64,000 bases of DNA, taken from positions 1 through 64,000 of the forward strand of contig CALXLA010000044.1 of assembly GCA_944389075.1 (NCBI GenBank). The letters run 5' to 3'. Shown one piece after another: positions 41,726 to 57,857 of the stretch. Source of the DNA: an uncultured Spirochaetaceae bacterium. GTDB lineage: Bacteria > Spirochaetota > Spirochaetia > Sphaerochaetales > Sphaerochaetaceae. The translations under genes and the position numbers were made by a program. The notes under the pieces are model-generated. The model ran no database searches. It had not been told where the DNA came from and saw only the letters and a list, made by a program, of their open reading frames with translations. Numbering within the stretch: the stretch's first letter is position 1; every line of letters starts with the position of its first letter.

Positions 41726-43387
41726 ATGATTGTAAAAGAAATATTCTCAAATAATGGAATCCATTTACACTACAAATACTTTGGAATAACAGATTTTGCT
41801 ACTTATTTTGAATTAAATTCATTATTAGAACATTTGCCTTTTGTTATTGATACTATTTCAAAACTTGAATTAACATGTCTGGATACAATAGATAATTTAA
41901 AAGATTTTATATTCATAAAGAAAATCTCTTTGTTTGCTGAAATTAAGAGTCAAATAAAACATGATTATCAACAGGATTTTGGATACTTACTAAAATACAC
42001 AAATAATATACTTAATAATTTTACAAAAAAAGACATAATAAAGTGCATCAATCAATCATATCAGGATTTTTTTACAGAGAAAGATAATTATGATGATTTC
42101 TATTCAGTCATTTTCGATTATATGATATCTTTTCAGACAGGAATATCCAAAAAAGTTTTTTTGCTATTTGCAAAGAAAAAGAAGAACTATATTCTAAATA
42201 ACTTTGGAAAACTCGGATCAATAAAATACAACATTGAATTCTTTAACGAGATTCTCCCTCCTTCTTTCAGTTTAAAAGAAGCTAAAGAACTTGGTCTGAA
42301 TCGAGTATTCTCAATATTCTCAAATATCTTAACAGATAAACTCTCACCTTTTAAAGAAAATATAAACATCTTCTTAGATAGGATCATCAATGAAGAAATT
42401 GAAATATTAAATAACGAACAAACCGTAATTACTAACATTATGCATATTGAAAGTGAATATCGTATAATACTATCCTTTTTAAAGAAAATTAAACATCATA
42501 GGACTTTTCAACTCCAAAAATACCAGAATCACATCAATTCGATTCTAGATAATCATCTTTTAAATCATGGTCAATCTTTTTCATTTACATTGCAAATTCA
42601 GGAAATCCTAATGGAAATAAAGAATATAGAAAACTGGCAATTGAAAATATTAATGTTAACCCATGAATATAGAGAAATTGATAAAAAATTCAGAAGCATT
42701 CTCTCGTGCAAGTCCAAAGGAAAACAACACATAATAGATTATGTATCAAGCAATATACCTACAAATGAATATTTTACTTTTTCACATCAGCAATTTCTAG
42801 AATTAATATATATTAATGGGGCAGCAATAATTCAAAGTCTTTGGCATGATTCTGAATTATATCCATCACTTAAAACATGGTATAGATCAATACTGATAGC
42901 TATTGATGAATCAATTGAAAGTGGCGAAAATTTAGCGGATGATATTAATATTGCATTTGCTTTATTGGATTGTATTTTACTTGGAAACAATAAAGATCAA
43001 GATTTATTGATAGCCAATTCCTATGGCGCTTGTATATTTATATGTGCAATGATTGAAAAGCTTTTAAGAGTTATATTCATTGATATTAATTCATTCAAAG
43101 GTATTTATGTTCCAGTTGAATACATACAATTAGGTTCTTTATTAAATTCACTTGAGATAAAAAATATATTAGGAGAAAATCATACAAAAACACTTTTATT
43201 CTATTTAGGACATGCCGATGCAGAACATATTGGATATAATATTCGTAATTCATTGGCACATTTAACAGAATACAATCTGAAAAATATAACACCACTTCAA
43301 GCTTGCAGCCTTTTTTATATTTATACCGATATTTTAAATTCCATAATGCTCAATAGATTCTATTCAGATCACTATATTCCAGAATAA
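41726..43387 (+). CDS. AT-rich unknown protein with C-terminal HEPN-like motif
   Basis: I do not recognise this 553-residue protein as a whole. It is far more AT-rich than all neighbours, with many Asn, Ile, Lys and Phe codons, so it was probably acquired recently. It appears mainly helical and has no signal peptide. Near the C-terminus GYNIRNSLAHLTEYNL gives RNSLAH, an Rx4H pattern found in HEPN ribonuclease domains and in DUF4209-like proteins, followed by a long helix. It could be an abortive-infection RNase. ATG 41726 follows GAAGG with TATAAT at 41702-41707. It lies just outside the guaA-end repeat. Confidence 0.6.
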   Translation: MIVKEIFSNNGIHLHYKYFGITDFATYFELNSLLEHLPFVIDTISKLELTCLDTIDNLKDFIFIKKISLFAEIKSQIKHDYQQDFGYLLKYTNNILNNFTKKDIIKCINQSYQDFFTEKDNYDDFYSVIFDYMISFQTGISKKVFLLFAKKKKNYILNNFGKLGSIKYNIEFFNEILPPSFSLKEAKELGLNRVFSIFSNILTDKLSPFKENINIFLDRIINEEIEILNNEQTVITNIMHIESEYRIILSFLKKIKHHRTFQLQKYQNHINSILDNHLLNHGQSFSFTLQIQEILMEIKNIENWQLKILMLTHEYREIDKKFRSILSCKSKGKQHIIDYVSSNIPTNEYFTFSHQQFLELIYINGAAIIQSLWHDSELYPSLKTWYRSILIAIDESIESGENLADDINIAFALLDCILLGNNKDQDLLIANSYGACIFICAMIEKLLRVIFIDINSFKGIYVPVEYIQLGSLLNSLEIKNILGENHTKTLLFYLGHADAEHIGYNIRNSLAHLTEYNLKNITPLQACSLFYIYTDILNSIMLNRFYSDHYIPE

Positions 43388-43650: not shown

Positions 43651-43721
43651 AATCGTTATAAAACAATTCCTTGCAATATAACGATTCTCCTAATAGCGAT
43701 AAAATCAAATCATTCCCACTC
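43651..43721 (-). repeat. Left 71-bp direct repeat: copy of guaA 3' end and terminator (att site)
   Basis: These bases match 56245-56315 with 3 mismatches in 71 and include a copy of the last guaA codons and stop (GAGTGGGAATGA on the minus strand). The hairpin AATCGTTAT/ATAACGATT is perfect and followed on the minus strand by TTTTTTG, so this copy holds a complete terminator and looks like the original chromosome end. Duplication of a gene 3' end is the footprint of site-specific integration. Confidence 0.85.
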
Positions 43722-43846
43722 AATAATTTCATTGTCTCATACACTATTTATGGTGTCATAGAATCTCAAATAAACACTATATATCTCATTCATCTCACAA
43801 GTATCAGATGGTTCAGGAATTTTTGGGGCCAAATCTGGGTCAGGCA

Positions 43847-44146
43847 TTAAGCTTCACCATTATTGGGGATGCGAGTAGGCACGAGAGTGTAACCTATTGC
43901 ATTCAGTATCTTACATACTGTAGCAAAAGAAGGATTGCCATTCGGAGAAAGTGCCTTATAAAGTCCTTCTCTGGTAATTCCCGCTTCTTTTGCAGTCTTT
44001 GTCATACCTTTTGCTCTTGCTACTGTATCTATCGCTTTGATAAGCGCAGCAGAATCATTCTCCTTTGCCACCTCATTAAGATAAAGAGTCTGAAGCTCAT
44101 CAGTATCAAGGTATTCAGCTGCATCAAATTTAGTCAGTTTCTCCAT
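43847..44146 (-). CDS. HigA-like antitoxin (putative addiction module antidote)
   Basis: A 99-residue helix-turn-helix antitoxin. The N-terminus KLTKFDAAEYLDTDELQ and the HTH KGMTKTAKEAGITREGLYKAL, SPNGNPSFATVCKILNAIG, are those of the addiction-module antidote family. I chose ATG 44146, seven bases after AAGGAG. It overlaps the toxin gene by 17 bp, and the toxin is first, as in HigBA-type systems. It should neutralise the toxin and repress the shared promoter. Confidence 0.93.
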   Translation of the reverse strand: MEKLTKFDAAEYLDTDELQTLYLNEVAKENDSAALIKAIDTVARAKGMTKTAKEAGITREGLYKALSPNGNPSFATVCKILNAIGYTLVPTRIPNNGEA

Positions 44147-44438
44147 CTTCATACTCCTTTGCAAGTTTCTTTGCTGTCTTTATATCATCACTCTGCGTTT
44201 TCTTATCTCCACCAACAAGAAGGATGATAATCTCTGAACTGCGGTCCATGAAATACACGCGGTATCCACTCCCTACATCAATCCGAAGTTCAAAAACCTT
44301 ATCACCAACGAACTTCGAATCTCCGAAATTACCTTGCTCAAGCCTTTCAATCCTGCGCGCTATTGCAACCTTAGCTAAGTTATCCTTCAACTTTCTAAAC
44401 CACTTTGCAAAACGCTCAGTTTGTAAGACTTCTTTCAT
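44130..44438 (-). CDS. RelE/HigB-type toxin
   Basis: A 102-residue mRNA-interferase-like toxin of the addiction-module killer family: FAKWFRKLKDNLAKVAIARRI, then GDSKFVGDKVFELRIDVGSGYRVYF and the C-terminal GGDKKTQSDDIKTAKKLA. The basic loop RIDVGSGYRVYF is the usual catalytic strand. No Shine-Dalgarno is seen; TACACT lies six bases before ATG 44438, with TTGACT 17 bases further up, so the toxin mRNA may be leaderless, a way to keep its translation low. Confidence 0.93.
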   Translation of the reverse strand: MKEVLQTERFAKWFRKLKDNLAKVAIARRIERLEQGNFGDSKFVGDKVFELRIDVGSGYRVYFMDRSSEIIILLVGGDKKTQSDDIKTAKKLAKEYEDGETD

Positions 44439-44456
44439 GCTTATAGTGTAAACCAT

Positions 44457-44639
44457 AGTTCACATTCAGTCAATCTACTGTTAGACAACACGTATTGCCA
44501 TAATAGCGTATTGACCAATAATCAGGTCACGTTGACCAACGTAGAGCGGATAAGGCACCCTGCGTTTCAAAGAACTACGAGCTTTGCTGTGGTGTGATTA
44601 TTCGCCCGTAATAGCACCGGTGCTTTTGCGAACGAATAA
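44457..44639. other. Decayed stretch between toxin promoter and RhuM remnant
   Basis: It contains the toxin promoter (TTGACT 44468-44473 on the minus strand) and otherwise no intact gene. Confidence 0.5.
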
Positions 44640-44789
44640 TCAATCAAGAGTAAGCCAGACAGTATTCTTTGAAGCGGAAATCCTGACATCCAGCTCGAAA
44701 GCCCCATCATGGAACATCACCAATGCTTTGTTATCAACGTACATATTTCTCCCTGCTTCTGTCTTATCAATCACGAAGGCTTTCATCAT
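44640..44789 (-). pseudogene. RhuM-family N-terminal fragment
   Basis: A 49-codon frame reads MMKAFVIDKTEAGRNMYV and then ALVMFHDGAFELDVRIS and NTVWLTLD before a stop. The second half fits the opening of RhuM/virulence-type proteins, whose next residues (QMAELF-like) are missing. It is thus a truncated 5' end. RhuM genes are common cargo of restriction and mobile islands. Confidence 0.5.
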
Positions 44790-44797
44790 TATCGGTT

Positions 44798-45300
44798 CTT
44801 AACCATATTTCATCTACATCGGAGAGCCTCACCAATGATTTTGAAAGAGCTGGATATCAAATGAACAAAGAGACCATTGAAAGCTATATCGACAAACTCA
44901 TCTGCTCTGGCTTCATGCGCTCCATACCTCAATACAAAAGGAAAGAGGTCTAGAAACTTTATGCCCTCAATCATCAGATGGGAGTACTCTACAAAGCTGG
45001 AAGCGAGTACACAAAGACAATCCTTGAACATATCATTCTCAGCAGCATCCTTAGACATACAGATCTTATTCCCTCTTTATTACATGACAAAGAATGGTAA
45101 AGAGATATCATTCATTCTCACCGGCGAGAATGGAGAACCATGCTACCTCATCGATGTTTTCTGATGATAAGTATGCAATACGTGAGACTGGCGCCAGGAA
45201 GGGTGTAATAATCACAAGTGATCATGATTCTCAGGAAGATGATATAATCACAATGTCAATTTTAGAATTGGTAAATTCATACCGAATTCGTACTTTATAA
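44798..45300 (+). pseudogene. DUF4143-type AAA ATPase C-terminal remnant, frameshifted
   Basis: Three frames in succession carry pieces of one protein: LTNDFERAGYQMNKETIESYIDKL (near 44840-44910), NGKEISFILTGENGEPCYLIDVF (near 45095-45164), then KYAIRETGARKGVIITSDHD and ITMSILELVNSYRIRTL, ending at 45300. This is the order of the C-terminal DUF4143 part of archaeal-type AAA_14 ATPases. The ATPase half is absent. It is clearly a dead gene. Confidence 0.65.
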
Positions 45301-45308
45301 TATGCCAA

Positions 45309-48300
45309 TTATATTCTCTTATTCCGAGCGTGATTGATTTCAGCACGCACCGTGTCCACGCAATAATCCATATCTTCAATCAGCTCTTTGACAACAAAAC
45401 GCATCGGTTTCCAGCCATATTGTTCAATAGCTGCATCTCTGCGGAAGTCACTTTCCTTTCTCGACCCATCAGCATTGAAATGATACTGATACCCATCCAC
45501 CTCGATATCAAGCCTCACAAATTCATCCTGATATGCCATATCAAACCGGTATCCGAGAAAACTGTATTGCGGTTTTGTTTCAATTCCAGCTTTTTGAAGA
45601 GCGTTGAATAAGGCCTCTTCCCATACAGAATCAAATGTGACATTGTCATCTCTCTTTCTGGAGTATTCACTAAGCATACTCAGTATTTTCGAAGATGAAT
45701 TTCTGCTGAGAGTCTTGTTTCCTATGACAATAAGACACGCCTTAGCTCTGCTTAATGCAACATCATAGATGTTATTGTTCTGCTCATTGGTAAGATACCA
45801 GATCTGTTTATTCCTCATATCAGGAAGATACCCAAGGACAAACAGAATCACATCACACTCCCCTCCTTGAAATCCATAGGCTGTGTCAACTTTGACATCA
45901 TTATGGGAGAACCCATTCCCGTAGATTTCATTTGCAAGTCTGTTTGCCACTGCACGTAAAGGAGTAACAACACCGATAGAACCATTGTAATTTTTGTTCT
46001 TAAAATCCTTAAGAAACCCAATGCAAGTACTGATTTCGTGATCAAGGCCATCTTCAATATTTATCCATCGCAGGTGGTCACCTGTTTCAAATCCAGGAGG
46101 ATAATTCAAAGGCCGTTCATTTGTACGAATACGAAGATTTCCATTGTAAAAGGCCTTATTGATAAAACCAGCTATGTCTGCGTCGCAACGGAAATGTTCT
46201 TTCAGCATTGATGGTTTAGCAAAACGAGAAGCAATTGAATAGGCTGTGTTTGTATAAAACTCAAAAGAGGCCGTATTCGAATCAACAGAATAGTACTTTC
46301 CAAGAATCATATCATGCCGCCTCTTGCTCATCGTGATGATGGGCCGAAACTGCTCTGGGTCGCCAATAATCATTGCTCTCTTGGCTCTGAATAACATTGG
46401 AATCACGGAGACACAATCACACTGGGAGGCCTCATCGATAACAACCATATCGAAGACTCCGCCTGCAAGAGGAGAAGCATGGCGTGCTGAAAGAAGAGAA
46501 ACAGCCCATGCAGGAACTACTGAAAACATCTTCTGCTCAGCAGTTACCATTTTAGATTGCCTATCCTTAGAAAGGGCTTTCCATGTCGGGCCTGATTTGC
46601 TTGCAGCAGATCTCTGCTGCCCGATGAATTCATAGTCCTTTTCATCAAGAGTGCGTATCTGCTCCCCCCATTTATACAGAAGAGAGGAGGAAGCATTGTC
46701 AATCATATTCTTCATCGCAGCATTGTAATCGTCGCTATAATCTTTGCTTCCTGAAACTGCAGTATGGTATTCAGCATATGCTTTATTGACTTCTGCTTTT
46801 GCTTTTCTGTATGAAGCTGAGGCCGTGACCAACTCCTTGCAGATAGCATCTAGCTTCTTATCCTTATCAATCGAGATACTTGAAATCAGATGATATTTCT
46901 CGACAAGCTGAATTCTCGCATCCTCAATCTTCTTGCCATGGAGCATTCGATACAAGAACCCGGCAATTCCAGCTTTCTTCGAAGAATCAACTATAATGGC
47001 CAATCTGAGTATTTCACTGAGGGTTTGATCTTTGAAGACCGAAGAATCAGCATGAACAAGAATGGACTTCAGATGGGTAAGCTCTGATATATATTTCTGC
47101 TCAATCTTCAGATATGACGATACAATGTTATTCAATTCCTCTGAGACTTCTTTGATCTCAGAGACGGTATTTGCAGAATCCAAGACTATCTTGTCAGAAG
47201 CTTCACCGGAGGCTGGAACTGCAGAAAGAATTGTCCGCGCTTCCTCTTCTGGCTTCACCTGATACCAGTCAGTCAATTCTCCATCATCGCTATTACAATA
47301 TCGTATGAGCGGAATGGACCTGGATTCTGAAAGAAGTGTATCTGCTCTATCATGAATCGCCTCAAGAGCAGCGTGGTTACGGCTAGAGAAAACAACTGAC
47401 ATGCCTCGATATACACAGTTGGCTATAAGATTGACAGCAACCTGTGATTTACCTGTTCCCGGTGGGCCTTGAAGCACTGTGAGATGATGAGATAATGCAT
47501 CCTCGACCGCTTCAAGTTGCTCACTATTGCTAGTCAAGAAAGGAATTGCTGAGATTCTGGCTTCATTTGTATCTTTGTAAGGGTGCTTGCGGAAAATGTA
47601 TGCAAGCGCAGATTTGTCAAGCTCTGCAGCATCCGCCTGTTCTATCATCTTAAGTTCACGGATAAGGCCGTTATTGAAAACAGTATTGTCTGTTCGGAAA
47701 AGAATCACAGTATTGCATAGCTTCCTTCTCTTCTGTCTGCTCGATACTTTCGGAAGTGTCTGTACAGTGCGTTCAGGATCGAATTCATCGGCAATGTTTG
47801 AATATGTTGAGTATCCGATGATTGTTCTTAGAGCATGAGCCAGATTCAGTCCATCATCTTCCTCAAGTTCATCAAAGAGTTCATCAAGCTGTGATAAATC
47901 ACAGTTACGGGTTATCCACTCAAAATTGTAAGAGGCATTCTTGAATAAAGGCTTGATGCGTACTTTGTAATCCTTGCCAGGCCTATCATCTTTTGAAAAA
48001 TAATCACAAAAGCATATAGGGATCAGGAATAGTGGAAGATAGTCATAGACTTCTCCGTTCTCATCAAACCGAGCTTCAACTGGATATCCTATACAGGCTT
48101 CAGGCGAAGACTCATTACTTTGAGCAATAGCATGAAGCATCTTTGATTCTCTTGCCTTAAGAGATATGACGAAATCAGGTTCAAAATCGCTTTTATGAGA
48201 AGGAAACCATAATGATGGTATTGTTGGAGGAATATAGAACTGCTGTCCTTGCTTTGTCACAGATAAATGGAATTCCTTACGGTCCTCAGTCTTCACACAT

Positions 48301-48608
48301 TCAATGTAATAAGATAGAAGCTTCCTAAAATCAGTCCACTCTGCCTCTGTGCTCATCGTATTTCCAGAAGCCCCCATCCCAAGTCTGTTTTTGGGGAAAA
48401 TCTGTAGACCAATGTCCGCAATGCCAACAATCATTCCATTCGATTTGATTACATTCTTCCGTTTCATAAGATGAAGAAGAGATGGAGCATCACCGGGGCG
48501 TATTCTGTTAAGCAAGTCTATGAAATCATCATAGGTATAGTTACGGGGTTTACCGCCTCTGACTTCCCATTGCTCAAGTACTGCTATGATTTCTTCTCTT
48601 TCAGTCAT
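45309..48608 (-). CDS. SF1 (UPF1-like) helicase with C-terminal VSR/DUF559-like nuclease
   Basis: A 1099-residue helicase-nuclease, last gene of the island operon. Walker A GPPGTGKS is at 381-388, DEAD-like box VIDEASQC near 740, GDPEQFRPI follows, and late motifs DTAYGFQGGECDVI and DVALSRAKACLIV show an SF1 UPF1-like core split by a coiled insert (about 480-650). Residues 1000-1095 form a PD-(D/E)xK domain of the VSR/DUF559 kind: SVWEEALFNAL, GYRFDMAY, RLDIEVDGYQYH. The N-terminal 370 residues are unassigned. It starts nine bases after the Hsp70-like stop. Helicases of this type accompany CoCoNuT systems and are thought to unwind RNA or DNA targets. Confidence 0.88.
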   Translation of the reverse strand: MTEREEIIAVLEQWEVRGGKPRNYTYDDFIDLLNRIRPGDAPSLLHLMKRKNVIKSNGMIVGIADIGLQIFPKNRLGMGASGNTMSTEAEWTDFRKLLSYYIECVKTEDRKEFHLSVTKQGQQFYIPPTIPSLWFPSHKSDFEPDFVISLKARESKMLHAIAQSNESSPEACIGYPVEARFDENGEVYDYLPLFLIPICFCDYFSKDDRPGKDYKVRIKPLFKNASYNFEWITRNCDLSQLDELFDELEEDDGLNLAHALRTIIGYSTYSNIADEFDPERTVQTLPKVSSRQKRRKLCNTVILFRTDNTVFNNGLIRELKMIEQADAAELDKSALAYIFRKHPYKDTNEARISAIPFLTSNSEQLEAVEDALSHHLTVLQGPPGTGKSQVAVNLIANCVYRGMSVVFSSRNHAALEAIHDRADTLLSESRSIPLIRYCNSDDGELTDWYQVKPEEEARTILSAVPASGEASDKIVLDSANTVSEIKEVSEELNNIVSSYLKIEQKYISELTHLKSILVHADSSVFKDQTLSEILRLAIIVDSSKKAGIAGFLYRMLHGKKIEDARIQLVEKYHLISSISIDKDKKLDAICKELVTASASYRKAKAEVNKAYAEYHTAVSGSKDYSDDYNAAMKNMIDNASSSLLYKWGEQIRTLDEKDYEFIGQQRSAASKSGPTWKALSKDRQSKMVTAEQKMFSVVPAWAVSLLSARHASPLAGGVFDMVVIDEASQCDCVSVIPMLFRAKRAMIIGDPEQFRPIITMSKRRHDMILGKYYSVDSNTASFEFYTNTAYSIASRFAKPSMLKEHFRCDADIAGFINKAFYNGNLRIRTNERPLNYPPGFETGDHLRWINIEDGLDHEISTCIGFLKDFKNKNYNGSIGVVTPLRAVANRLANEIYGNGFSHNDVKVDTAYGFQGGECDVILFVLGYLPDMRNKQIWYLTNEQNNNIYDVALSRAKACLIVIGNKTLSRNSSSKILSMLSEYSRKRDDNVTFDSVWEEALFNALQKAGIETKPQYSFLGYRFDMAYQDEFVRLDIEVDGYQYHFNADGSRKESDFRRDAAIEQYGWKPMRFVVKELIEDMDYCVDTVRAEINHARNKRI

Positions 48609-48617
48609 CTGCTTTCC

Positions 48618-51146
48618 CTATAGATCTGCTGTAGGTATATTGAGATTGCCTTTGCCATTCAGATACAAATTAAGAATCGACCCCCATCTCTTTACATCCC
48701 CAAAACATGAGTCATTCCTTCTTGCAATATTTCTCAGTACAGATTCATCATGCAGCAATCCAACATTCATCAATACAGATTCTGATAAGTACTGATAAAA
48801 GCACTTCTCAAAAGCCTGCCTTTGAGACAGCTTCAAACCAATTGCTTTATAAATAAGTAACACTTCAGAATCCTTGTAATCGGAGATATTCAGAAGACTT
48901 ATGTACCTATCAATAAATAGCCTGACAGGCTCAGTGCCATTTGACGATAACATATTAAGAAGAATGTAATAGCTTCCATCTACAGTAATGACATCATTTT
49001 CATCCTGTTTGCAGAACTCAGAGTAAACGCTCCTGAGTTTCATCATAAAACAGAGAATTTTACATATATTCGAACGAATGCCTGATCCGCTTTGACTTGA
49101 GTAATAAGAAGAAATGAGCATATTCAGAGTTGTATATATCTGTGAAAGATCCTGAGCCAGTATCTCGAAGACATCGGGGTTGCTCATCATTATCTGATAG
49201 GCAGCACGATACCAGTGATTTGCCCCACTGACTCCTTGCTCAAAGCTTCCTGTAGATAACTTACGGAAGAATGCTTTCATGAATAGAACCCCATCATCCT
49301 GTGATGTGAACATGTTCGCACAGAATGATGCTTTTCCAGCATCCAATTTAAAGTATTTAGTCGAACATCTCTGTCCGAGATCTCTTATATATTTTCTTAC
49401 ATATTCTGTAACATGAGGAACCTGCAGAGGATGATATGTCCAGGCTGCTAGGGTGATAAGATCGGAAGAATGAGCTACCTCGAAACGTTCATCGATTGTA
49501 TTAAGAAATTTCAGGCATGCTTCCTTCTGATCCGGGTCTTCAGGCAATCCATCATCATCTTCAGTCGGTACACCAAATGTGTTATAGCGTTCAAATCTGG
49601 TAATATCCTTAGCTGCTGGATGAGCCCAGACCGATTTATTGATATCAGCCCCCTGCAAGAAAGCATTATTAAGTATGAAGCATCGAATCGGAAGATATAC
49701 TGAATCTGTAAGATATCCGGATTTCTTTCTGACATAAGGAATATCAGGAGGAAAGGAACGTTCCATTTCGCTCTCTAGTGTTTCTAGCGTCTTATCAGAA
49801 TCCTCCATCTTCTCCCAGTCGAGCTGGAGTCCCCTGAATATCGTTTCATACTTATGGTCTTTAGCAACGATATCAACAGAGGCTCTTCCCTGTCCAGGAA
49901 TCAGAGATGGTTGCAGTTCAAGTTCAATTGTCTTTCCATGGATTTCTTTTCTAAGTTCATCTGGGATATCAAAAGGCTGGAAAAGGCTTTTAAGCGGAGC
50001 ATTGCGTTTCTGCTCTCCCAATCGAAGATAGAATTCGACGTTTTTTGTCTCAGGATGAAGATAGATTCCATCAACAGTCTTACCAACAATCCTCTTACTG
50101 CTCCTGAGCCTCTGATCTGCTTCGATAAGAGTTTTGAAATGATATCGCTCACTCCTGTCTGCAACAACAAGGCTAAGAGCCTCGCACTCATCAAAGTAAG
50201 CCGTTATTTCATGCTCCATGCAATTTGCAAAACAGGCCGCACCATAAGCAATGGAATCACCGGTGGTATCTATTATCGGATTTTCGAACCATCTCTTAAG
50301 GGTGTCTCTAACCTCTGAACTCAGATTCCCAACAGCAATCACAGTTGTTATGCCTGTATTGCTGAGAAGTCTTATCCCATACAGGGGATCAATCGGGGCT
50401 ATTGCTCTCTCAGAAGCCGGTTGCAGCATGCCAGCCTTTATTTCATAAGGAATCTGAGGCTTAAGAACATCAGCTTTCAATACTCTGTTGAATGGATAGT
50501 TCTCTGATCTGACATATCCAGTATCAGAGTTGAGGAATAGCCTATGTGCCGGAATCCAGAAACCATCACATTCCTCAATCCAGAGATATGATATGGTTGT
50601 TCCAGTTGGCTCTATATCAACAACGGCAACCTTTTCGTGTTCACTGAATTCTTTCTGAATTCTCTCAGCATTGCCTAGAAAAGCCGCTACTGAACGCCAT
50701 AAAAGGACTGGGGTTTTATGAAGCCCATCTGTAGCAGCTTTTATCAGTTTGTTCTGGAAATCGGCAGGCAGACGATCTGGGACAGGAATCACCAGTTTCT
50801 CTGTCTTATCTATCTTTTTTCCTGCAAGAGGAAGGAAAACAGCTCTGAACCAATTCCGAAGACTCTCAGTATCTTCGCGGTCACTACCTGATAATGCCAA
50901 TATCTTTCTTAAATCAGCAGCCTTGGAAGCATCAATGGAAAACCCTTGGGCATCTTTGATGATTAGATCATCCAGCACTATATGTTCTGAATCGATGACA
51001 TAAGGCTGTTTATTTGAACTGCTATCAGGAGAAATCAATATCAGAGGAAGCTTCAGCTCATCACTTTTTATGGCATCCGTTTTTTCAGATGGCTCATAGC
51101 CGTAATACTTTCCTCCCCAGAGGTCCATAACAGAAAATGAACTCAT
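48618..51146 (-). CDS. Hsp70-like ATPase-fold protein of the island operon
   Basis: An 842-residue protein with an actin/Hsp70-type first part. VMDLWGGKYYGY replaces the usual phosphate-1 DLGTTNS; VAVVDIEPTGTTISYLWI (near 175) is phosphate-2; and TTVIAVGNLSSEVRDTLKRW with GDSIAYGAACFA (near 270-300) corresponds to the Hsp70 VGG...AVAYGAA region. Both phosphate loops are altered, so ATP hydrolysis is uncertain. From about 420 onward it is alpha-helical without a named domain. It overlaps the McrC-like gene by four bases. Hsp70 homologues are described in CoCoNuT systems and proposed to bind RNA. Confidence 0.75.
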   Translation of the reverse strand: MSSFSVMDLWGGKYYGYEPSEKTDAIKSDELKLPLILISPDSSSNKQPYVIDSEHIVLDDLIIKDAQGFSIDASKAADLRKILALSGSDREDTESLRNWFRAVFLPLAGKKIDKTEKLVIPVPDRLPADFQNKLIKAATDGLHKTPVLLWRSVAAFLGNAERIQKEFSEHEKVAVVDIEPTGTTISYLWIEECDGFWIPAHRLFLNSDTGYVRSENYPFNRVLKADVLKPQIPYEIKAGMLQPASERAIAPIDPLYGIRLLSNTGITTVIAVGNLSSEVRDTLKRWFENPIIDTTGDSIAYGAACFANCMEHEITAYFDECEALSLVVADRSERYHFKTLIEADQRLRSSKRIVGKTVDGIYLHPETKNVEFYLRLGEQKRNAPLKSLFQPFDIPDELRKEIHGKTIELELQPSLIPGQGRASVDIVAKDHKYETIFRGLQLDWEKMEDSDKTLETLESEMERSFPPDIPYVRKKSGYLTDSVYLPIRCFILNNAFLQGADINKSVWAHPAAKDITRFERYNTFGVPTEDDDGLPEDPDQKEACLKFLNTIDERFEVAHSSDLITLAAWTYHPLQVPHVTEYVRKYIRDLGQRCSTKYFKLDAGKASFCANMFTSQDDGVLFMKAFFRKLSTGSFEQGVSGANHWYRAAYQIMMSNPDVFEILAQDLSQIYTTLNMLISSYYSSQSGSGIRSNICKILCFMMKLRSVYSEFCKQDENDVITVDGSYYILLNMLSSNGTEPVRLFIDRYISLLNISDYKDSEVLLIYKAIGLKLSQRQAFEKCFYQYLSESVLMNVGLLHDESVLRNIARRNDSCFGDVKRWGSILNLYLNGKGNLNIPTADL

Positions 51147-52465
51147 AATGTTAACCCCCTGAAGAAAGAAGATGACACAATTGCGTTATATATGTCATGG
51201 GCAATATCATCACTGACAGACTTACCGACAAAGCGCATTGATTCCGTCTCTGCTCTGTACTCATTTCCTGATTCTGAATAGATTATCGATAAGCCTCTTC
51301 TTTCTGCTGTGAAAACATCCAGATGTGCATAATCAGGAATCAGATAGCATCGGATTACATGCTTTACATCTCCCATAACCGTATTAAGGATGTTTCCATC
51401 ACGGCATCTGAACTCTATTCCCTCATCATTATCCATAATCCGGAAAGAACGATTAGTTTCACCGCAATAGTCAAAATATGCTTGATTGGGATCTGAACAG
51501 AATGTTCCATTCTCTGAAGCATACTGGAACATCCAGATATCATGACTGATTGCACCTTCGGTATGAATTCTGTCATCGATTGCAGCAATTGCAATAAGCT
51601 TAGCTGTCTCATAGAACATCCTATGCCGATAACGCCACATAGTTTCAATCTCAGTAATATGATTCGCCAGACGAAGATAGCTGAGCCAGATTGCGTGATA
51701 GAATCTATTGTTCTGCAAAGTATAATTCGGTACCGGCACAGAATGAAGCATCCTGACTTCATTGAATTCTGGCATTGAAAGGCCTTTGCTTACAAGTGAG
51801 ACGAATCTGCGCACAAGAGCAACTTTCTTAGAGTTCCTGTATCTATCTTCTCTACCATATTTTGCAATATATCGCCGGCCTTCATTGAGACTATAAATCA
51901 TATACTGCTTTAGAACTCTGTTTTCGAGTGTATCCATTGATTCATGCCTCACAACCCCCATAAGCTTCTGCTTTGTTCCACCTTTCTCGACAGCAGTGTA
52001 GCCAGGCTGCCTTGCAAGCCATCTCATGCAATAGCTGTCTATCTGCTGGATATTGCCAAGAGGAACAAGCTCCTGATTTCGTCGCAGGACTTTTCGAGGA
52101 CTCTGTAGAAGATGTTGAAGTGAGATGAAATCGTTATCTGCTATCTGCACTATCATCTTCGAAGGAGGCTCATCAGAATAAGACGTATTAGAACAGTAAT
52201 CGAGAATAGAGGAAAGCTTTACAGGAAGCTCCTTGCGTTTATTCCTGATCCTATAAGGAAGAGCCAGGTCAGTTTCTGCCTCGTCGAGGATTGCTGTATA
52301 GAACTCACGCATATCATCCATGACATCGAATTTCAGCAGAATCTCATCGGATTGGCTGGAAGAGGCATAATATCGCCTGACTTCACGCGTATCAGTATAA
52401 ATCTCTTCTGTGAAGCGCTCATTGATTGATCCTGGATAAATGCGGAAGTCAGATAATATGGACAT
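51143..52465 (-). CDS. DUF2357/McrC-like protein
   Basis: A 440-residue protein with the DUF2357 core common to McrC proteins: LVPLGNIQQIDSYCMRWLA, then MGVVRHESMDTLENRVLKQYM (near residues 180-205), followed by helices. In McrC this part is joined to a PD-(D/E)xK nuclease that cuts DNA. I do not see a convincing D...ExK arrangement in the last 130 residues, so the nuclease may be lost or very divergent. ATG 52465 follows CAGGT; it starts five bases after the McrB-like stop. It should bind and stimulate the McrB-like partner. Confidence 0.75.
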   Translation of the reverse strand: MSILSDFRIYPGSINERFTEEIYTDTREVRRYYASSSQSDEILLKFDVMDDMREFYTAILDEAETDLALPYRIRNKRKELPVKLSSILDYCSNTSYSDEPPSKMIVQIADNDFISLQHLLQSPRKVLRRNQELVPLGNIQQIDSYCMRWLARQPGYTAVEKGGTKQKLMGVVRHESMDTLENRVLKQYMIYSLNEGRRYIAKYGREDRYRNSKKVALVRRFVSLVSKGLSMPEFNEVRMLHSVPVPNYTLQNNRFYHAIWLSYLRLANHITEIETMWRYRHRMFYETAKLIAIAAIDDRIHTEGAISHDIWMFQYASENGTFCSDPNQAYFDYCGETNRSFRIMDNDEGIEFRCRDGNILNTVMGDVKHVIRCYLIPDYAHLDVFTAERRGLSIIYSESGNEYRAETESMRFVGKSVSDDIAHDIYNAIVSSSFFRGLTL

Positions 52466-52470
52466 CACGA

Positions 52471-54399
52471 TTACCTGCTGACACCCTTCCACTGGAAGAA
52501 GGTGTTGCTGTTCCTGCTGGAAATCACTTCTGAAAAAATCTTTGTAAGCTCATCATCTTTGACTTTTTCTATCGTGCCCAGCATTGAACGAAGCACATCA
52601 GAAACCGCCGATTCTGACATATCAACGCCATTCAGTTTCGGGAGTATCTTCATCTCTATCTGATCAGCCAATGCTGCATTGAAGCTGGCTGGATCTTTAT
52701 CAGCACCCGGATACATCGAGACATAAGTCTCTATTGATCTCCACACACGATAAGCGAATGGATGGTTAATCTTTGCCATATTCTGATTCAGTTCAGTCAC
52801 TATTGAATCAAGCCTTTCCATCAGGTCTGGATGGAGTTTCTTTTCTTTGCAGAGCTTCTTCCATGAACTGTACTGCATATATCTTCCATCATCAGGATAC
52901 TTCTTGAAGAAAACATCATTGTCCATCTTGGCATTTATTGATTCAGGCATTCCGAATCGGAGCACATTCGCCCTATCCATTACTTTATCTGATAGAGTCT
53001 GTGTCGTCTCATCCTCATTCATCGTTCCAACGAAGAGAGTATTGGAGTCAACAAACAATCGTCTTGCGGACTCTGAATCACCTATTGAACCACCTTCAAT
53101 CTCAATCTCTGCTGTTTTTCTGACATCATCGTCAAATTTATCAGAGATACTCCTACGCTGTTCGAGCTTGCTCAGCATGTCGCTGAAGTAATACTCAACC
53201 CTTGCCAGGTTCATCTCATCTAGAAGCACGATGTTCATAGGAAGGGAGTCCTCTGTAGGATACTTCTTTATCACTTCCGCTTTATTGTTGAAGATATCAA
53301 ACTGCCATAGCATTCTTGAAAGCTCGGTTGCTTTGTATCTGTTCTGCATGTAGTTGTAGAATCCGAACATATCCTGTGGGCTATCCCATCTTGGTTGAAC
53401 AGCAACTGAAAGGAAATTCATTCCGAACGCCCGGGCATAGAGAGATGGCAAGAGACTCTTTCCTGTTCCTGAAATTCCTGCTAAGACAACAAGCGGAGAG
53501 GCGTCTTCAGCCTTGAGGCTGGTATGGAAAGCATTGATAGTCCTATCGCTGAAGATGATATTGCTATCCTTAAGAGCCTCTTTGAAGCCATTAAGCATAC
53601 TCTCTTCATCTTCATCTTTCATTGGGATTGCGCCTTTGTCAAAATAAGGCCTATCCAGATCTTCCCATCTTGTCTTCTCAGCCTTTTCTCGTCCCTCTTC
53701 CTTAGCCCATTGAATCTTGGAAGCTTCAAGATCTGTCGTCAGTTTTTCAAGCTTCTGCCTACCCTGCTCATATTGAGTCTGGACTTCTTGGCTCTTTGCT
53801 CTTGCCTCCTCAGTCTGCCTTTCGAGTGAGTTCTTCTCTTCCTTAAGCTTCTGAATATCAAGCCTGAGATTATCAACTTGGATTTTTAGGCCTTCTATCT
53901 GTTTATCGAGTTCATTAATCTGATCGTTCTTCTTATTTATCTCAGTGATGAGTGAATCATGTTTCTCCTGCTGATCCTTGATCTCTTTATCAAGCTTATG
54001 CTGATTCTCCTGAAGTTCTGTAAGTTCCTCATTCTTCGTTTTAAGGTCATCATCAGCAGCTTGAAGCTTTGAGGTTATCTCTTTGATATCCTCATTCATC
54101 TTATCTATAAGAAGTTTCTTATCATCATAATCTTTCTGGAAATCATTGATGAATTTCTCCATTGCTTCTTTCTTGTCTATGATCTGCTGAACAGCAAGCT
54201 TCTCAGCTTCGAGCTGCTTAATCTGCTCTTTGACGTAGTAGTAGTTATCCCTAGCCGCTGCAATTGCGCTTTCAAGCTTCTCTCTGGTCCGGTTGTATGG
54301 GTTCAATCTACGTGCTCTGAAGTACATGACACAGGAAAAAACAACAATGATAAGAAGAATGCCTACTGAGACTATTGCCGTTAATATTACAAGAATCAT
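52471..54399 (-). CDS. Membrane-anchored coiled-coil McrB-like AAA+ protein
   Basis: A 642-residue protein in three parts. Residues 3-27 are a membrane helix. Residues about 40-240 form a long, unbroken coiled coil rich in Lys, Glu, Gln and Leu. Residues 285-640 are a McrB-type AAA+ domain: Walker A AGISGTGKS (308-315), Walker B IVLLDEMNLARVEYYF (390-405), sensor-like LFVGTMNEDETTQTLSDK and arginine-rich VMDRANVLRF. It overlaps the coiled-coil partner upstream by four bases. McrB homologues with coiled coils define CoCoNuT systems; a membrane anchor puts this one at the cell envelope. GTP or ATP use is unknown. Confidence 0.9.
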   Translation of the reverse strand: MILVILTAIVSVGILLIIVVFSCVMYFRARRLNPYNRTREKLESAIAAARDNYYYVKEQIKQLEAEKLAVQQIIDKKEAMEKFINDFQKDYDDKKLLIDKMNEDIKEITSKLQAADDDLKTKNEELTELQENQHKLDKEIKDQQEKHDSLITEINKKNDQINELDKQIEGLKIQVDNLRLDIQKLKEEKNSLERQTEEARAKSQEVQTQYEQGRQKLEKLTTDLEASKIQWAKEEGREKAEKTRWEDLDRPYFDKGAIPMKDEDEESMLNGFKEALKDSNIIFSDRTINAFHTSLKAEDASPLVVLAGISGTGKSLLPSLYARAFGMNFLSVAVQPRWDSPQDMFGFYNYMQNRYKATELSRMLWQFDIFNNKAEVIKKYPTEDSLPMNIVLLDEMNLARVEYYFSDMLSKLEQRRSISDKFDDDVRKTAEIEIEGGSIGDSESARRLFVDSNTLFVGTMNEDETTQTLSDKVMDRANVLRFGMPESINAKMDNDVFFKKYPDDGRYMQYSSWKKLCKEKKLHPDLMERLDSIVTELNQNMAKINHPFAYRVWRSIETYVSMYPGADKDPASFNAALADQIEMKILPKLNGVDMSESAVSDVLRSMLGTIEKVKDDELTKIFSEVISSRNSNTFFQWKGVSR

Positions 54400-55670
54400 C
54401 TTGCACCTCCTTCGGATGCATCTTCACTGAGTTGGTTTGCTTTTGCTTCAAGCTGTCCGATTGTTCGATTGAGTTCTGCAATTCTGCTATCAAGAGAACT
54501 TATCTCTGCTCGTTTCTGAGTCAGTTCAGCATCAGCTGCTGATATAGAAGTTGCGACTACGGATAGTGCTGATTGCCTAGAAGTGAAATCAGACACAGAT
54601 GACTGTAAAGTCTCTATCTGTTCATTTAGATTATTCTTGGTATTCTCAAGAACCGCGACATCAGATTCAAGAGAAGATTGCTGTACAGAAAAATCTGAAA
54701 CCTGCTTTTGAAGAGTATTATATTCTGCTGTAAGAGAAGCTAGCCTAGCATTTGTCGAAGCCAATGTACTTTCAGCTTCACTGTTATCAGCAATGAAAGA
54801 AAGAAGCTCACTTTTCTGCTGCGTAAGAGATGAAACATCACCGGAAAGAATTTCCTTTGTGTTAGAAAGCGCTGCGATTTCTGAATTCAAAGCATTCCTT
54901 TGTGATGTAAGGTCTGACACAATAGTAGCAAGATTCTGATTCTGATTCTGAAGGTCAGAAAGATTGTCCTGAGCATCTGCAACCTGTGAATCAAGCAGGT
55001 TCTTGGTATTCTGCTGTCTTGATATCGAATCATTGAGAATATTAAGAGAGGACTGTGTATCGCTGACAGACTGACGAAGTGCTTCGTACTGATCATTCAG
55101 TTCATCATTGCGGGATGTCAAAGCTGTGTTCAACCCTGCCAATCTTGAATTCTCACTCTGCAGGTTGCTTTGAGTATCCATCAATCCATTAACATCATTC
55201 TCCAATGCGGTTTTCTGCTCATTCAGAACATTGTTTGCATTCTGAAGATCTATACTTCTCTGTGCCTCATCTGAAAGATCGGCTATCGTCTGATTCAGGG
55301 ATTCAATCTCATTCTGCAGAGCATTTCGCTGATTCGTGAGGATAGATATCTTGTCTTCCTCACTTACTCTTAGCTCTTCCATATGTGAATTGAAGGTTGT
55401 TCGTTCTTCCTCTACACTGACTCTGAATTCCGACAGCGTGTTTTCCCACTCAAGGAAATCCTCGGAATAATAAGTGATTGCAGCAATTGCAGCAATTGCA
55501 GCCAGCACAGCAATAAGCACAGCCAAACAGTAAATCAGTTTACCTCTCTGACTATCTTTTATTTCCTTCGCAGTAGGTTCGAAATCGAAATCAATCACAT
55601 TCGAAGCCTGCTCCTGCTCATCCTCCAGATTCTGCTCTGAAAAGTCTGTATCATTTGGATTCTGTGACAT
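54396..55670 (-). CDS. Coiled-coil membrane protein, first gene of the defence-like operon
   Basis: A 424-residue protein. Residues 1-42 are acidic and presumably cytoplasmic, 43-68 form an alanine/isoleucine-rich membrane helix (LIYCLAVLIAVLAAIAAIAA), and 70-420 are almost wholly coiled coil with Ser, Asn, Gln and Leu heptads. It has no enzymatic domain. Its architecture mirrors the membrane helix and coiled coil of the McrB-like partner, so the two may pair side by side in the membrane. ATG 55670 follows a GGGGAG-type site. It may be the sensor or scaffold of the system. Confidence 0.85.
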   Translation of the reverse strand: MSQNPNDTDFSEQNLEDEQEQASNVIDFDFEPTAKEIKDSQRGKLIYCLAVLIAVLAAIAAIAAITYYSEDFLEWENTLSEFRVSVEEERTTFNSHMEELRVSEEDKISILTNQRNALQNEIESLNQTIADLSDEAQRSIDLQNANNVLNEQKTALENDVNGLMDTQSNLQSENSRLAGLNTALTSRNDELNDQYEALRQSVSDTQSSLNILNDSISRQQNTKNLLDSQVADAQDNLSDLQNQNQNLATIVSDLTSQRNALNSEIAALSNTKEILSGDVSSLTQQKSELLSFIADNSEAESTLASTNARLASLTAEYNTLQKQVSDFSVQQSSLESDVAVLENTKNNLNEQIETLQSSVSDFTSRQSALSVVATSISAADAELTQKRAEISSLDSRIAELNRTIGQLEAKANQLSEDASEGGAR

Positions 55671-55904
55671 ACTTTCCCTTCTCCCCTTATTCTGGATTTG
55701 ATTTTATCCTTCTGAATATAAGGAGTATATCACTCAGATTCTTTTTAATCTCCAGCAATTACAGACAATCTTCCCATTTTATGCAGGAACCTCACTTGCA
55801 AAAGTAAGAGCAAGTCTGAAGAAGTGGTGATCTGTGCCCCTAAAAGATAACACATATCAGCAACGGCTTCTTTCGAAGGGCACAAAGGACGCGGACTTGC
55901 AAAG
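55671..55904 (-). promoter_or_regulatory. Control region of the island operon
   Basis: On the minus strand TGATATACT (55724-55732), an extended -10, precedes a leader of about 45 nt that ends in a GGGGAGAAGGG ribosome site. No clear -35 is present, which fits an extended -10 promoter. No operator palindrome was found. Confidence 0.55.
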
Positions 55905-56129
55905 ATGAAAGCTGAAGAGTGGAAAGAGAAGAAGCATTATCCTGCTCAGTATCTCTCCTGTCAGAGAATAGCACAGTGTCTTTCTGCGATGCGGTGCATA
56001 GCCACTGGCCATGAGTATGAGATGAGGACAGTTATTGTCGACACGGAGCATAAGGCATTCTCCATCGTCTGTCCTATAGCCAGGGAACTATACGAAGCTT
56101 CTTTTCCTTCTGATGTGAGGAGTTCATAG
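55905..56129 (+). CDS. Small unknown frame at the right end of the island
   Basis: A 74-codon plus-strand frame (MKAEEWKEKKHYPAQYLS and onward). Beyond its TAG the same frame runs on 29 more codons with a hydrophobic helix (IQLWAMGIVAAALLAS), so it may be a gene broken by a stop. No ribosome site or family is recognised. Its location, where the recombination genes of integrated elements often sit, is its only interest; I see no recombinase motif. Confidence 0.3.
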   Translation: MKAEEWKEKKHYPAQYLSCQRIAQCLSAMRCIATGHEYEMRTVIVDTEHKAFSIVCPIARELYEASFPSDVRSS

Positions 56130-56244
56130 CAGTATAGGGCGAGCATAAGGAGCTTTGTGATCCAGCTGTGGGCAATGGGAATAGTTGCCGCCGCACTTCT
56201 CGCATCAAAACTCTGCTGAGATGAATCGCAACTGAATAGTTACG
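56130..56244. other. Right junction of the island
   Basis: No gene is seen apart from the hydrophobic continuation described for the adjacent frame. Confidence 0.4.
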
Positions 56245-56315
56245 AATCGTCATAAAACAATTCTTTGCAGTATAACGATTCTCCTAATAGCGATAAAATC
56301 AAATCATTCCCACTC
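56245..56315 (-). repeat. Right 71-bp direct repeat: active guaA 3' end (att site)
   Basis: This copy overlaps the last four codons of guaA, so the element brought a replacement 3' end that keeps the gene intact. Relative to the left copy three bases differ: one weakens the terminator stem (TTATGACGATT) and two fall in its loop or inner stem. The T-run after the stem is absent, replaced by CGTAACT. Confidence 0.85.
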
Positions 56316-57857
56316 TATCGTTGCTGGTGGTTTTGATGTTACATCATAGAGGACTCTGTTAACGCCTTTGACCTCATTGCAGATTCTGGAAGAAGCTCTC
56401 TGAAGGACATCATAAGGCATCCTGTACCAGTCAGCTGTCATAGCATCCTCTGAAGTGACTGCACGGAGAGTACAGACTTCCCTGTATGTCCTCTCATCAC
56501 CCTGCACGCCTACGCTCTTCACAGGAAGAAGATCTGCGAATGCCTGCCAGATTTTATCATAGAGTCCAGCCTTGCGGATCTCATCGATGAAAATCGCATC
56601 AATATCACGGAGAGTATCGAGGCGCTCCTTAGTAACCTCTCCGATGCATCTCACGCCAAGGCCAGGACCTGGGAACGGATGACGGTACACAAGCTCATCA
56701 GGAAGACCGAGCTCCTTTCCAAGTGCCCTTACCTCATCCTTGAAAAGATCCTTCAGAGGCTCAAGAAGCTGCCACTTCAGATCCTCAGGAAGACCGCCGA
56801 CATTATGATGTGATTTGATTGTCGAGGACGGACCGCCGAATGGCGACTTCGACTCAACAACATCAGGATACAGCGTGCCCTGAGCCAGGAATGAGATATC
56901 CCCGCACTTCCTTGCCTCCCTGTAGAATGTATCGACAAAGAGCTTTCCGATTATCTTCCTCTTGCTCTCAGGCTCAGTCACGCCCTTGAGCGCTGCAAGG
57001 AAATCATCCTCAGCATCAGCATACTGAAGCCGCATGCTGAAGTTCTTCGAGAAAAGATCTATTACAGACTGCGCCTCATTCTTGCGAAGCATTCCGTTAT
57101 TCACGAACACACAGACAAGCTGATCACCGATTGCCTTATGGATAAGGACAGCAGCAACAGATGAATCGACTCCTCCTGAAAGACCGCAGAGAACAGTCTT
57201 GTTGCCTACAGTCCTGCGGATATCCTCAATGGCATCGTTGACGAATGAGCCCATGTTCCAGTCAGCTCTTGCTCCTACGATATCAAGGACGAAAGAGCGG
57301 ATCATTTTCTCGCCTTCAACGGAATGCACGACCTCCGGATGGAACTGCACGCCATAGAACTTGCGGGCCTTATCCTCCACAGCAGCATATGGGCATGTCG
57401 GAGTCGTAGCTGTGACAGTGAAGCCCGGAGCCATTCTATCGACACTGTCACCATGGCTCATCCATACCTGGCTTCTGTCGCTGACATTGCGGAAAAGAAG
57501 CGATGACTTATCCGCGATATCAATATTCTGAAGCCCGTATTCCTTCTTATCAGGACAAGTGACATTTCCGCCAAGGCATTCTGTCATCACCTGAAGGCCA
57601 TAGCAGATGCCGAGAATAGGGATTCCCAGCGAGAATATCGCACTGTCAGGTCTGGGAGAGCCTGGAGTCTTAACGGAAGCAGGCCCGCCCGAGAATATGA
57701 TTCCCTTAGGCCCGATGCTTCTCACTTCTTCCGCGCTGATCGTGAAAGGCACAATCTGGCTGTAGACACCGCACTCCCTGACACGCCTTGCTATAAGCTG
57801 GCTGTACTGTGCGCCGAAATCGAGAACGAGTATGCAATCATGATCTGATACTGCCAT
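56304..57857 (-). CDS. guaA: GMP synthase (glutamine-hydrolysing)
   Basis: Makes GMP from XMP, glutamine and ATP. The 517-residue protein has an N-terminal class I glutaminase domain (nucleophile in GICYGLQ near residue 82, HPEV near 172), the ATP pyrophosphatase PP-loop LSGGVDSSVAAVL near 228, and the C-terminal dimerisation domain ending TIEWE. ATG 57857 follows GGGAG. It is the last gene of a six-gene minus-strand operon, and its 3' end is the integration site of the island. Confidence 0.98.
   Translation of the reverse strand: MAVSDHDCILVLDFGAQYSQLIARRVRECGVYSQIVPFTISAEEVRSIGPKGIIFSGGPASVKTPGSPRPDSAIFSLGIPILGICYGLQVMTECLGGNVTCPDKKEYGLQNIDIADKSSLLFRNVSDRSQVWMSHGDSVDRMAPGFTVTATTPTCPYAAVEDKARKFYGVQFHPEVVHSVEGEKMIRSFVLDIVGARADWNMGSFVNDAIEDIRRTVGNKTVLCGLSGGVDSSVAAVLIHKAIGDQLVCVFVNNGMLRKNEAQSVIDLFSKNFSMRLQYADAEDDFLAALKGVTEPESKRKIIGKLFVDTFYREARKCGDISFLAQGTLYPDVVESKSPFGGPSSTIKSHHNVGGLPEDLKWQLLEPLKDLFKDEVRALGKELGLPDELVYRHPFPGPGLGVRCIGEVTKERLDTLRDIDAIFIDEIRKAGLYDKIWQAFADLLPVKSVGVQGDERTYREVCTLRAVTSEDAMTADWYRMPYDVLQRASSRICNEVKGVNRVLYDVTSKPPATIEWE

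What the first reader, a model, noticed from the sequence alone, without database searches (positions are those of the whole stretch)
45309..55670. Five-gene CoCoNuT-like type IV restriction system with two membrane-anchored coiled-coil proteins
Seen: a tightly coupled operon of a coiled-coil membrane protein, a membrane-anchored coiled-coil McrB-like AAA+ protein, a DUF2357/McrC-like protein, an Hsp70-like protein and an SF1 helicase with C-terminal VSR/DUF559-like nuclease, inside a mobile island. Known: CoCoNuT systems are McrBC relatives with coiled coils, Hsp70 homologues and helicases, predicted to target RNA. Inferred: this is an envelope-anchored form, perhaps sensing phage at the membrane. 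The paired TM plus coiled-coil layout of two adjacent proteins is what I find unusual.
Basis: partly seen in the sequence, partly recalled or inferred. Interest (0 to 1): 0.8.

Follow-up and report, generated by a model that had tools for sequence, protein, structure and literature searches.

The report
Membrane-anchored CoCoNuT phage-defence operon
This is a five-gene bacterial defence operon of the published CoCoNuT family (type III-B-like), and both its coiled-coil protein and its McrB-like motor carry an N-terminal membrane anchor that is conserved in nearly all relatives examined, which suggests that this branch of restriction systems works at the cell membrane, where phage DNA enters.

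Summary
At 45309-55670 (minus strand) five overlapping or abutting genes encode CnuA (membrane anchor plus coiled coil), CnuB (anchor, coiled coil, McrB-like AAA+ with the NxD motif), CnuC (DUF2357, no nuclease motif), CnuD (Hsp70 fold) and CnuH (UPF1-like helicase with an intact C-terminal Vsr/MTES_1575 nuclease). This is the gene set published as type III-B CoCoNuT (PMC11090510), so the system itself is known. The operon sits in a 12.6-kb cassette bounded by a 74-nt direct repeat at the guaA 3' end, with no integrase inside. Of 68 related loci from many phyla, 48 hold all five parts including the nuclease. The paired anchors are conserved across this class and absent from CnuB of four type II/III-A-like loci; I found no mention of them in the main text of the CoCoNuT paper (its supplements were not readable here). 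The window belongs to a divergent sub-lineage: helicase last, CnuC without the N-terminal beta-sandwich, and CnuC-CnuD fused in some relatives. Charge and composition place the CnuB coil in the cytoplasm and suggest, less firmly, a periplasmic CnuA coil. Best explanation: restriction of entering phage nucleic acid at the inner membrane. Sensing and target remain untested.

The parts
54396..55670 (-). CnuA-like: 424 aa, 44-aa N-terminal tail, one TM helix, about 355-aa coiled coil without proline or cysteine
55464..55538 (-). TM segment of CnuA (residues 45-69); 4 K/R in the 20 residues before it, 1 after (predicted N-in/C-out)
52471..54399 (-). CnuB: 642 aa, N-terminal TM, coiled coil, McrB-like AAA+ domain (about residues 262-642)
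   Evidence: PADLOC candidate PDC-M26A E 1.2e-33
54319..54399 (-). TM segment of CnuB (residues 1-27); no K/R before it, 6 after (predicted N-out/C-in)
53455..53478 (-). Walker A GISGTGKS (residues 308-315)
53011..53019 (-). NxD signature N461-E462-D463 (GTMNEDE)
   Evidence: definition in PMC11090510
51143..52492 (-). CnuC: DUF2357 McrC-like, no PD-(D/E)xK motif; likely real start at Met10 (52465)
48618..51146 (-). CnuD: Hsp70-like nucleotide- and substrate-binding fold plus C-terminal helical region, 842 aa
45309..48608 (-). CnuH: UPF1/SEN1-like SF1 helicase with a long insertion after motif I and a C-terminal nuclease, 1099 aa
45333..45641 (-). Vsr/MTES_1575 nuclease domain; E997, D1023, D1034, E1036, D1038, H1043 invariant in 16 aligned relatives
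44130..44456 (-). Gp49/HigB-like toxin of a toxin-antitoxin pair, passenger of the same cassette
   Evidence: PF05973
43847..44164 (-). HI1420-type antidote/HTH protein
   Evidence: PF21716, E 9e-30
43651..43724 (+). left 74-nt direct repeat (attachment-like site)
56245..56318 (+). right 74-nt direct repeat, overlapping the last codons of guaA (..IEWE stop)

Best explanation
A type III-B-like CoCoNuT (McrBC-related) defence system fixed to the inner membrane. Shown by sequence: two N-terminal TM anchors, coiled coils, an NxD AAA+ motor, a nuclease-free McrC-like activator, an Hsp70-fold protein and a UPF1-like helicase fused to a nuclease with intact active-site residues. Inferred: CnuB assembles on CnuC as a McrB-type ring tethered to the membrane (an FtsH-like topology); CnuD binds the foreign nucleic acid or ribonucleoprotein; and the assembly loads or licenses CnuH, which unwinds and cuts nucleic acid, most likely phage DNA as it enters. 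In the window's clade the CnuA coil is predicted to lie in the periplasm, so CnuA may report envelope disturbance to CnuB through the membrane.
For: Family, motif and fold results for the five proteins. All five parts including the nuclease in 48 of 68 non-redundant loci, and all five genes in 28 of 32 with enough flanking DNA. N-terminal TM of Kyte-Doolittle mean at least 1.9 in CnuB of 63 of 66 III-B-type loci, against 0 of 4 type II/III-A-like CnuB; in the first 150 residues of the soluble partners 0 of 77 CnuC, 0 of 24 CnuD, 1 of 56 CnuH. A TM (at least 1.4) in 60 of 64 CnuA candidates. CnuB: almost no K/R before the TM and 2-4.4 on average after it, so the AAA+ domain is cytoplasmic. CnuA coils hold less Cys (0.10% vs 0.51%) and more N/Q/S/T (27% vs 20%) than CnuB coils of the same loci. 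Located in an att-flanked cassette at a site that in related genomes holds other restriction-type modules. Membrane-localised nucleases as a defence strategy are established for Zorya, Kiwa and SNIPE (PMC12904381; PMC11890865).
Against: No experiment exists for any III-B system that I could find. TM calls rest on hydropathy. CnuA topology is not uniform: outside the window and alphaproteobacterial clades K/R counts favour the opposite orientation (26 of 40 with fewer before the TM), although net charge favours N-in (27 vs 8). CoCoNuTs were predicted to target RNA (PMC11090510), not DNA. No domain contacting the cell wall or a phage component was identified in CnuA.
Confidence: 0.6

Rival explanations
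1. A membrane-tethered CoCoNuT that targets RNA or translation components, as proposed for CoCoNuTs in general; the Vsr-like domain cuts RNA or tRNA and the anchors only localise the complex.
For: CnuD is an Hsp70 homologue whose profile's only PDB sequence matches are weak hits to Hsp70-type chains (E 0.02-0.06), and the structure search lists ribosome-associated Ssb and Ssz1 among many Hsp70s; the helicase is UPF1/SEN1-like, a clade of RNA helicases; authors' argument in PMC11090510.
Against: The nuclease is an intact Vsr/MTES_1575-type PD-(D/E)xK domain; the HEPN RNase effector of other CoCoNuT types is absent; membrane anchoring suits incoming DNA better.
Confidence: 0.3
2. Both coils are cytoplasmic and pair with each other; CnuA is only a second tether or scaffold for CnuB, with no periplasmic sensing.
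For: In many planctomycete and desulfobacterial loci CnuA has more K/R after than before the TM (26 of 40), and CnuA and CnuB are adjacent coiled-coil genes.
Against: Charge pattern in the window, L024, L030 and alphaproteobacterial CnuA; Cys-poor, N/Q/S/T-rich CnuA coil unlike the CnuB coil.
Confidence: 0.35
3. A CoCoPALM-type system (FtsB-like TM plus coiled coil on an NxD McrB, linked to pilus assembly) rather than a CoCoNuT.
For: CoCoPALMs are described as having a TM plus coiled-coil McrB (PMC11090510).
Against: No signal-peptidase or pilus gene in the cassette; presence of CnuD and CnuH-Vsr, which define type III CoCoNuTs.
Confidence: 0.05

Closest known systems
Type III-B CoCoNuT (Bell et al. 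2024, PMC11090510)
   Same: Same five components: stand-alone coiled-coil CnuA, coiled-coil NxD CnuB, nuclease-dead CnuC, separate Hsp70-like CnuD, CnuH with insertion after Walker A and fused Vsr, no TerY-P
   Different: I found no mention of TM anchors for III-B in the paper's main text; here the gene order is A-B-C-D-H (alphaproteobacterial loci H-A-B-C-D), CnuC lacks the N-terminal beta-sandwich, and some relatives fuse CnuC to CnuD
Type III-C CoCoNuT (cyanobacterial, e.g. Synechocystis pSYSX, L022)
   Same: Related CnuB; hydrophobic N-terminal segment of at least 1.6 in 10 of 14 CnuB
   Different: In L022 a phospholipase D-type gene takes the place of Vsr and there is no CnuA gene; separate clade in the tree
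Zorya (PMC11890865)
   Same: Works like: inner-membrane complex with a long coil tail plus separate cytoplasmic nuclease effectors
   Different: ZorAB is an ion-driven MotAB-like motor; no McrB, McrC or Hsp70 homologues
Kiwa and SNIPE (review PMC12904381)
   Same: Works like: membrane-anchored defence acting at phage DNA entry
   Different: Unrelated proteins; no AAA+ motor or helicase named in the descriptions read
CoCoPALM
   Same: NxD McrB with TM and coiled coil
   Different: Linked to pilus assembly genes, which are absent here

Membership tests
CoCoNuT (class) | McrB-like GTPase with the NxD motif | tested here: met
   GTMNEDE in CnuB
[quoted passage not shown]
   residues about 30-250, z 8.8
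Type III-B CoCoNuT | GTPase phylogeny within III-B | tested here: inconclusive
Type III-B CoCoNuT | DUF2357 CnuC lacking the nuclease catalytic motif | tested here: met
Type III-B CoCoNuT | inactivated PD-(D/E)xK fold retained in CnuC | tested here: inconclusive
   C-terminal beta-rich domain modelled, but no Foldseek match
Type III-B CoCoNuT | N-terminal Ig-like beta-sandwich in CnuC (stated for types I, II, III-B and III-C; classification itself rests on GTPase phylogeny and gene context) | tested here: not met
   The window's 449-aa CnuC model has a disordered then mainly helical N-terminus; relatives outside its clade are longer
Type III-B CoCoNuT | separate Hsp70-like CnuD | tested here: met
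Type III-B CoCoNuT | UPF1-like CnuH with insertion after Walker A and C-terminal Vsr nuclease, no CnuE | tested here: met
Type III-B CoCoNuT | stand-alone coiled-coil CnuA without other domains | tested here: met
   a TM segment is added
Type III-B CoCoNuT | no TerY-P triad | tested here: met
   Not in the cassette; the rest of the genome was not searched for it
Type III-B CoCoNuT | N-terminal wHTH and OB-fold in CnuH | not tested
Any phage-defence system | protects against phage | not testable with these tools
   no wet-lab data
CoCoPALM | pilus-assembly/signal-peptidase partner | tested here: not met
   None in the cassette

The most novel reading that the evidence does not exclude
Type III-B CoCoNuTs are transmembrane injection sensors: a periplasmic CnuA coil detects envelope disturbance by phage and signals through the membrane to a tethered McrB-type ring, which loads a helicase-nuclease on the entering phage DNA. 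This would be a membrane-anchored class of McrBC-related restriction.
Probability: 0.3. Interest if true: 0.82.

Novelty: new variant of a known kind. Interest (0 to 1): 0.6.

Why it matters
CoCoNuTs were described by sequence analysis as probable RNA-targeting systems, and I found no experimental study of the III-B type. A conserved membrane anchor on both CnuA and CnuB across III-B-type loci from many phyla changes the likely site of action and links McrBC-type restriction with the membrane-localised systems Zorya, Kiwa and SNIPE. It gives direct tests: delete the anchors, map the topology, follow phage DNA entry. The survey also widens the range of III-B-type systems well beyond Alphaproteobacteria, and a natural CnuC-CnuD fusion supports physical partnership of those subunits.

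Tried and rejected
CnuC: neither a profile search of PDB sequences nor Foldseek of its model gave a usable match, so the dead-nuclease fold could not be confirmed. CnuB: phmmer against PDB gave nothing and a profile found only coiled-coil matches. NCBIfam, Pfam and PADLOC hits of the coils to SMC, LmuB and JetC were discarded as generic coiled-coil similarity. CoCoPALM was considered and rejected (no pilus genes). E. coli McrB as outgroup gave an uninformative long branch. No integrase was found inside the cassette; tyrosine recombinases occur elsewhere in the genome.

Full report
Observation. GC falls from about 0.47-0.50 in the flanks to about 0.39-0.43 over the operon.

What each protein is. 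CnuB has an AAA_5 domain, Walker A GISGTGKS and the sensor motif GTMNEDE, which is the NxD form followed by E that defines the CoCoNuT branch of McrB. CnuC has DUF2357 (E 6e-9) and no conserved PD-(D/E)xK motif in an alignment of 17 homologues. CnuD matches no Pfam model; a profile of 17 homologues finds only Hsp70-type chains in PDB sequences, weakly (E 0.02-0.06), and its AlphaFold model matches DnaK and other Hsp70s by Foldseek with probability 1.00 (best E 6.8e-11). CnuH is closest by sequence in the PDB to '5'-3' RNA helicase-like' proteins, SEN1, SMUBP-2 and UPF1, has a long insertion after the Walker A motif, and ends in an MTES_1575/DUF559 (Vsr-like) nuclease whose acidic and histidine residues are invariant in 16 homologues, as are its Walker A and B residues. 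CnuA is a TM segment followed by about 355 residues of coiled coil with no proline and no cysteine.

Identity. This set (CnuA coiled coil alone, CnuB, nuclease-dead CnuC, separate CnuD, CnuH with insertion and fused Vsr, no TerY-P) is the one published as type III-B CoCoNuT (PMC11090510). Plasmids of Rhizobium carry the same genes in the order H-A-B-C-D, and a genome of the window's own family carries them in the window's order (L024). A scan of 84,980 species genomes gave 80 loci; the scan used GTMNEDE as one of its two search patterns, so that motif is conserved among these loci partly by construction, and the list keeps the loci most like the query. Of 68 non-redundant III-B-type loci, 48 have all five parts including the Vsr domain, and 28 of 32 with room on both sides have all five genes. 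They come from Verrucomicrobiota, Lentisphaerota, Kiritimatiellota, Planctomycetota, Thermodesulfobacteriota, Alpha- and Gammaproteobacteria and others, wider than the 'primarily Alphaproteobacteria' of the paper.

A divergent sub-lineage. The AAA+ tree puts the window with L030 (a Clostridia-labelled MAG, 71% identical) inside a 15-row clade (support 100/99) within a 66-row III-B-type clade (95/89), apart from cyanobacterial III-C-like and type II/III-A-like proteins. In this clade the helicase comes last wherever it is seen (13 of 13), against 33 helicase-first and 6 helicase-last elsewhere. The window's CnuC (449 aa) lacks the N-terminal beta-sandwich said to be present in III-B (model), and in six loci of one branch CnuC and CnuD are fused into one protein of about 1000-1090 aa, an arrangement the paper describes for type III-A.

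The anchors. CnuB of 63 of 66 III-B-type loci has an N-terminal hydrophobic segment with a 19-residue Kyte-Doolittle mean of at least 1.9, against 0 of 4 CnuB of type II/III-A-like loci; within the first 150 residues such a segment occurs in 0 of 77 CnuC, 0 of 24 CnuD and 1 of 56 CnuH. 60 of 64 CnuA candidates have a TM of at least 1.4. So the paired anchor is a class property and not a peculiarity of this locus. The word 'transmembrane' occurs six times in the paper's main text, none of them about III-B; its supplementary files could not be read, so the trait may be recorded there.

Topology. CnuB has practically no positive charge before its TM and several after it, so its coil and AAA+ domain face the cytoplasm. 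In CnuA of the window, L024 and L030 the positive charges precede the TM (4 vs 1, 5 vs 2, 4 vs 3), which predicts a periplasmic coil; the alphaproteobacterial set agrees on net charge (6 of 6). In the remaining loci the K/R count points the other way (26 of 40) while net charge agrees (27 vs 8), so this is a lead and not a result. CnuA coils are poorer in cysteine (0.10% vs 0.51%) and richer in N/Q/S/T (27% vs 20%) than CnuB coils of the same loci, compatible with different compartments.

Setting. A 74-nt direct repeat (95%) at 43651-43724 and 56245-56318 bounds 12.6 kb; the right copy contains the last codons of guaA. Inside are the operon and a HigBA-type toxin-antitoxin pair, and no integrase. 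In a same-genus genome the corresponding site holds another repeat-bounded, integrase-free cassette (L126: C5 methyltransferase, GHKL ATPase, Z1, DUF4420, AIPR); L128 carries a C5-methyltransferase/GHKL module next to guaA. The guaA end therefore appears to be a recurrent site for defence cassettes in this genus.

Mechanism. Shown by sequence: anchors, coils, motor motifs, Hsp70 fold, intact helicase and nuclease residues, conserved co-occurrence. Inferred from McrBC biology: a CnuB ring activated by CnuC. Inferred from context: defence against phage. Inferred from anchors plus nuclease type and by analogy with Zorya, Kiwa and SNIPE: action on entering phage DNA at the inner membrane. The RNA-target view of the CoCoNuT authors remains a serious rival.

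Verdict. A real, well-defined system of a known class. The conserved, apparently unremarked membrane anchoring and the divergent architecture of its clade are the new content.

Noticed in passing
window 43651-56318; L126 2256-12721; L128 5317-11261: Cassettes without an integrase at the guaA 3' end in several genomes of the genus (repeat-bounded in the window and L126), carrying different defence-type modules. The repeat holds an inverted repeat AATCGTTATA-N16-TATAACGATT, perhaps a recombinase core site supplied in trans.
   Followed up: partly
G000:C3:59403-59476 (L129 9403-9476): A stand-alone paralogue of the GuaA C-terminal half (326 aa, 53% identical) ends in the same attachment-like sequence; the contig stops about 0.5 kb further on.
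   Followed up: no
L032, L037, L038, L039, L041, L042: CnuC and CnuD fused into one protein of about 1000-1090 aa within a III-B-type operon.
   Followed up: yes
L034 15620-19831: CnuH of 1403 aa with a second C-terminal helicase-like part and a second Vsr-like nuclease domain.
   Followed up: no
L019 1103-1849: A DUF4041 protein with an N-terminal TM segment (SNIPE-like membrane nuclease) lies near the Rhizobium tropici III-B operon, whose cnuH is split by an IS21 element.
   Followed up: no
window 39259-41520 and 41726-43387: A 753-aa truncated DnaE-like DNA polymerase III alpha protein and an AT-rich (about 27-33% GC) 553-aa ORF of unknown family just left of the cassette.
   Followed up: no
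L022 and other cyanobacterial loci: CnuB of III-C-like systems also often has a hydrophobic N-terminus (10 of 14 at least 1.6), so membrane association may extend to III-C.
   Followed up: partly
L030: Closest relative of the whole operon lies in a MAG labelled Clostridia (CnuB 59%, AAA domain 71%); either transfer between phyla or a misbinned contig.
   Followed up: no
window 52471-54399: CnuB matches PADLOC candidate PDC-M26A (E 1.2e-33), so that candidate may correspond to CoCoNuT CnuB.
   Followed up: no
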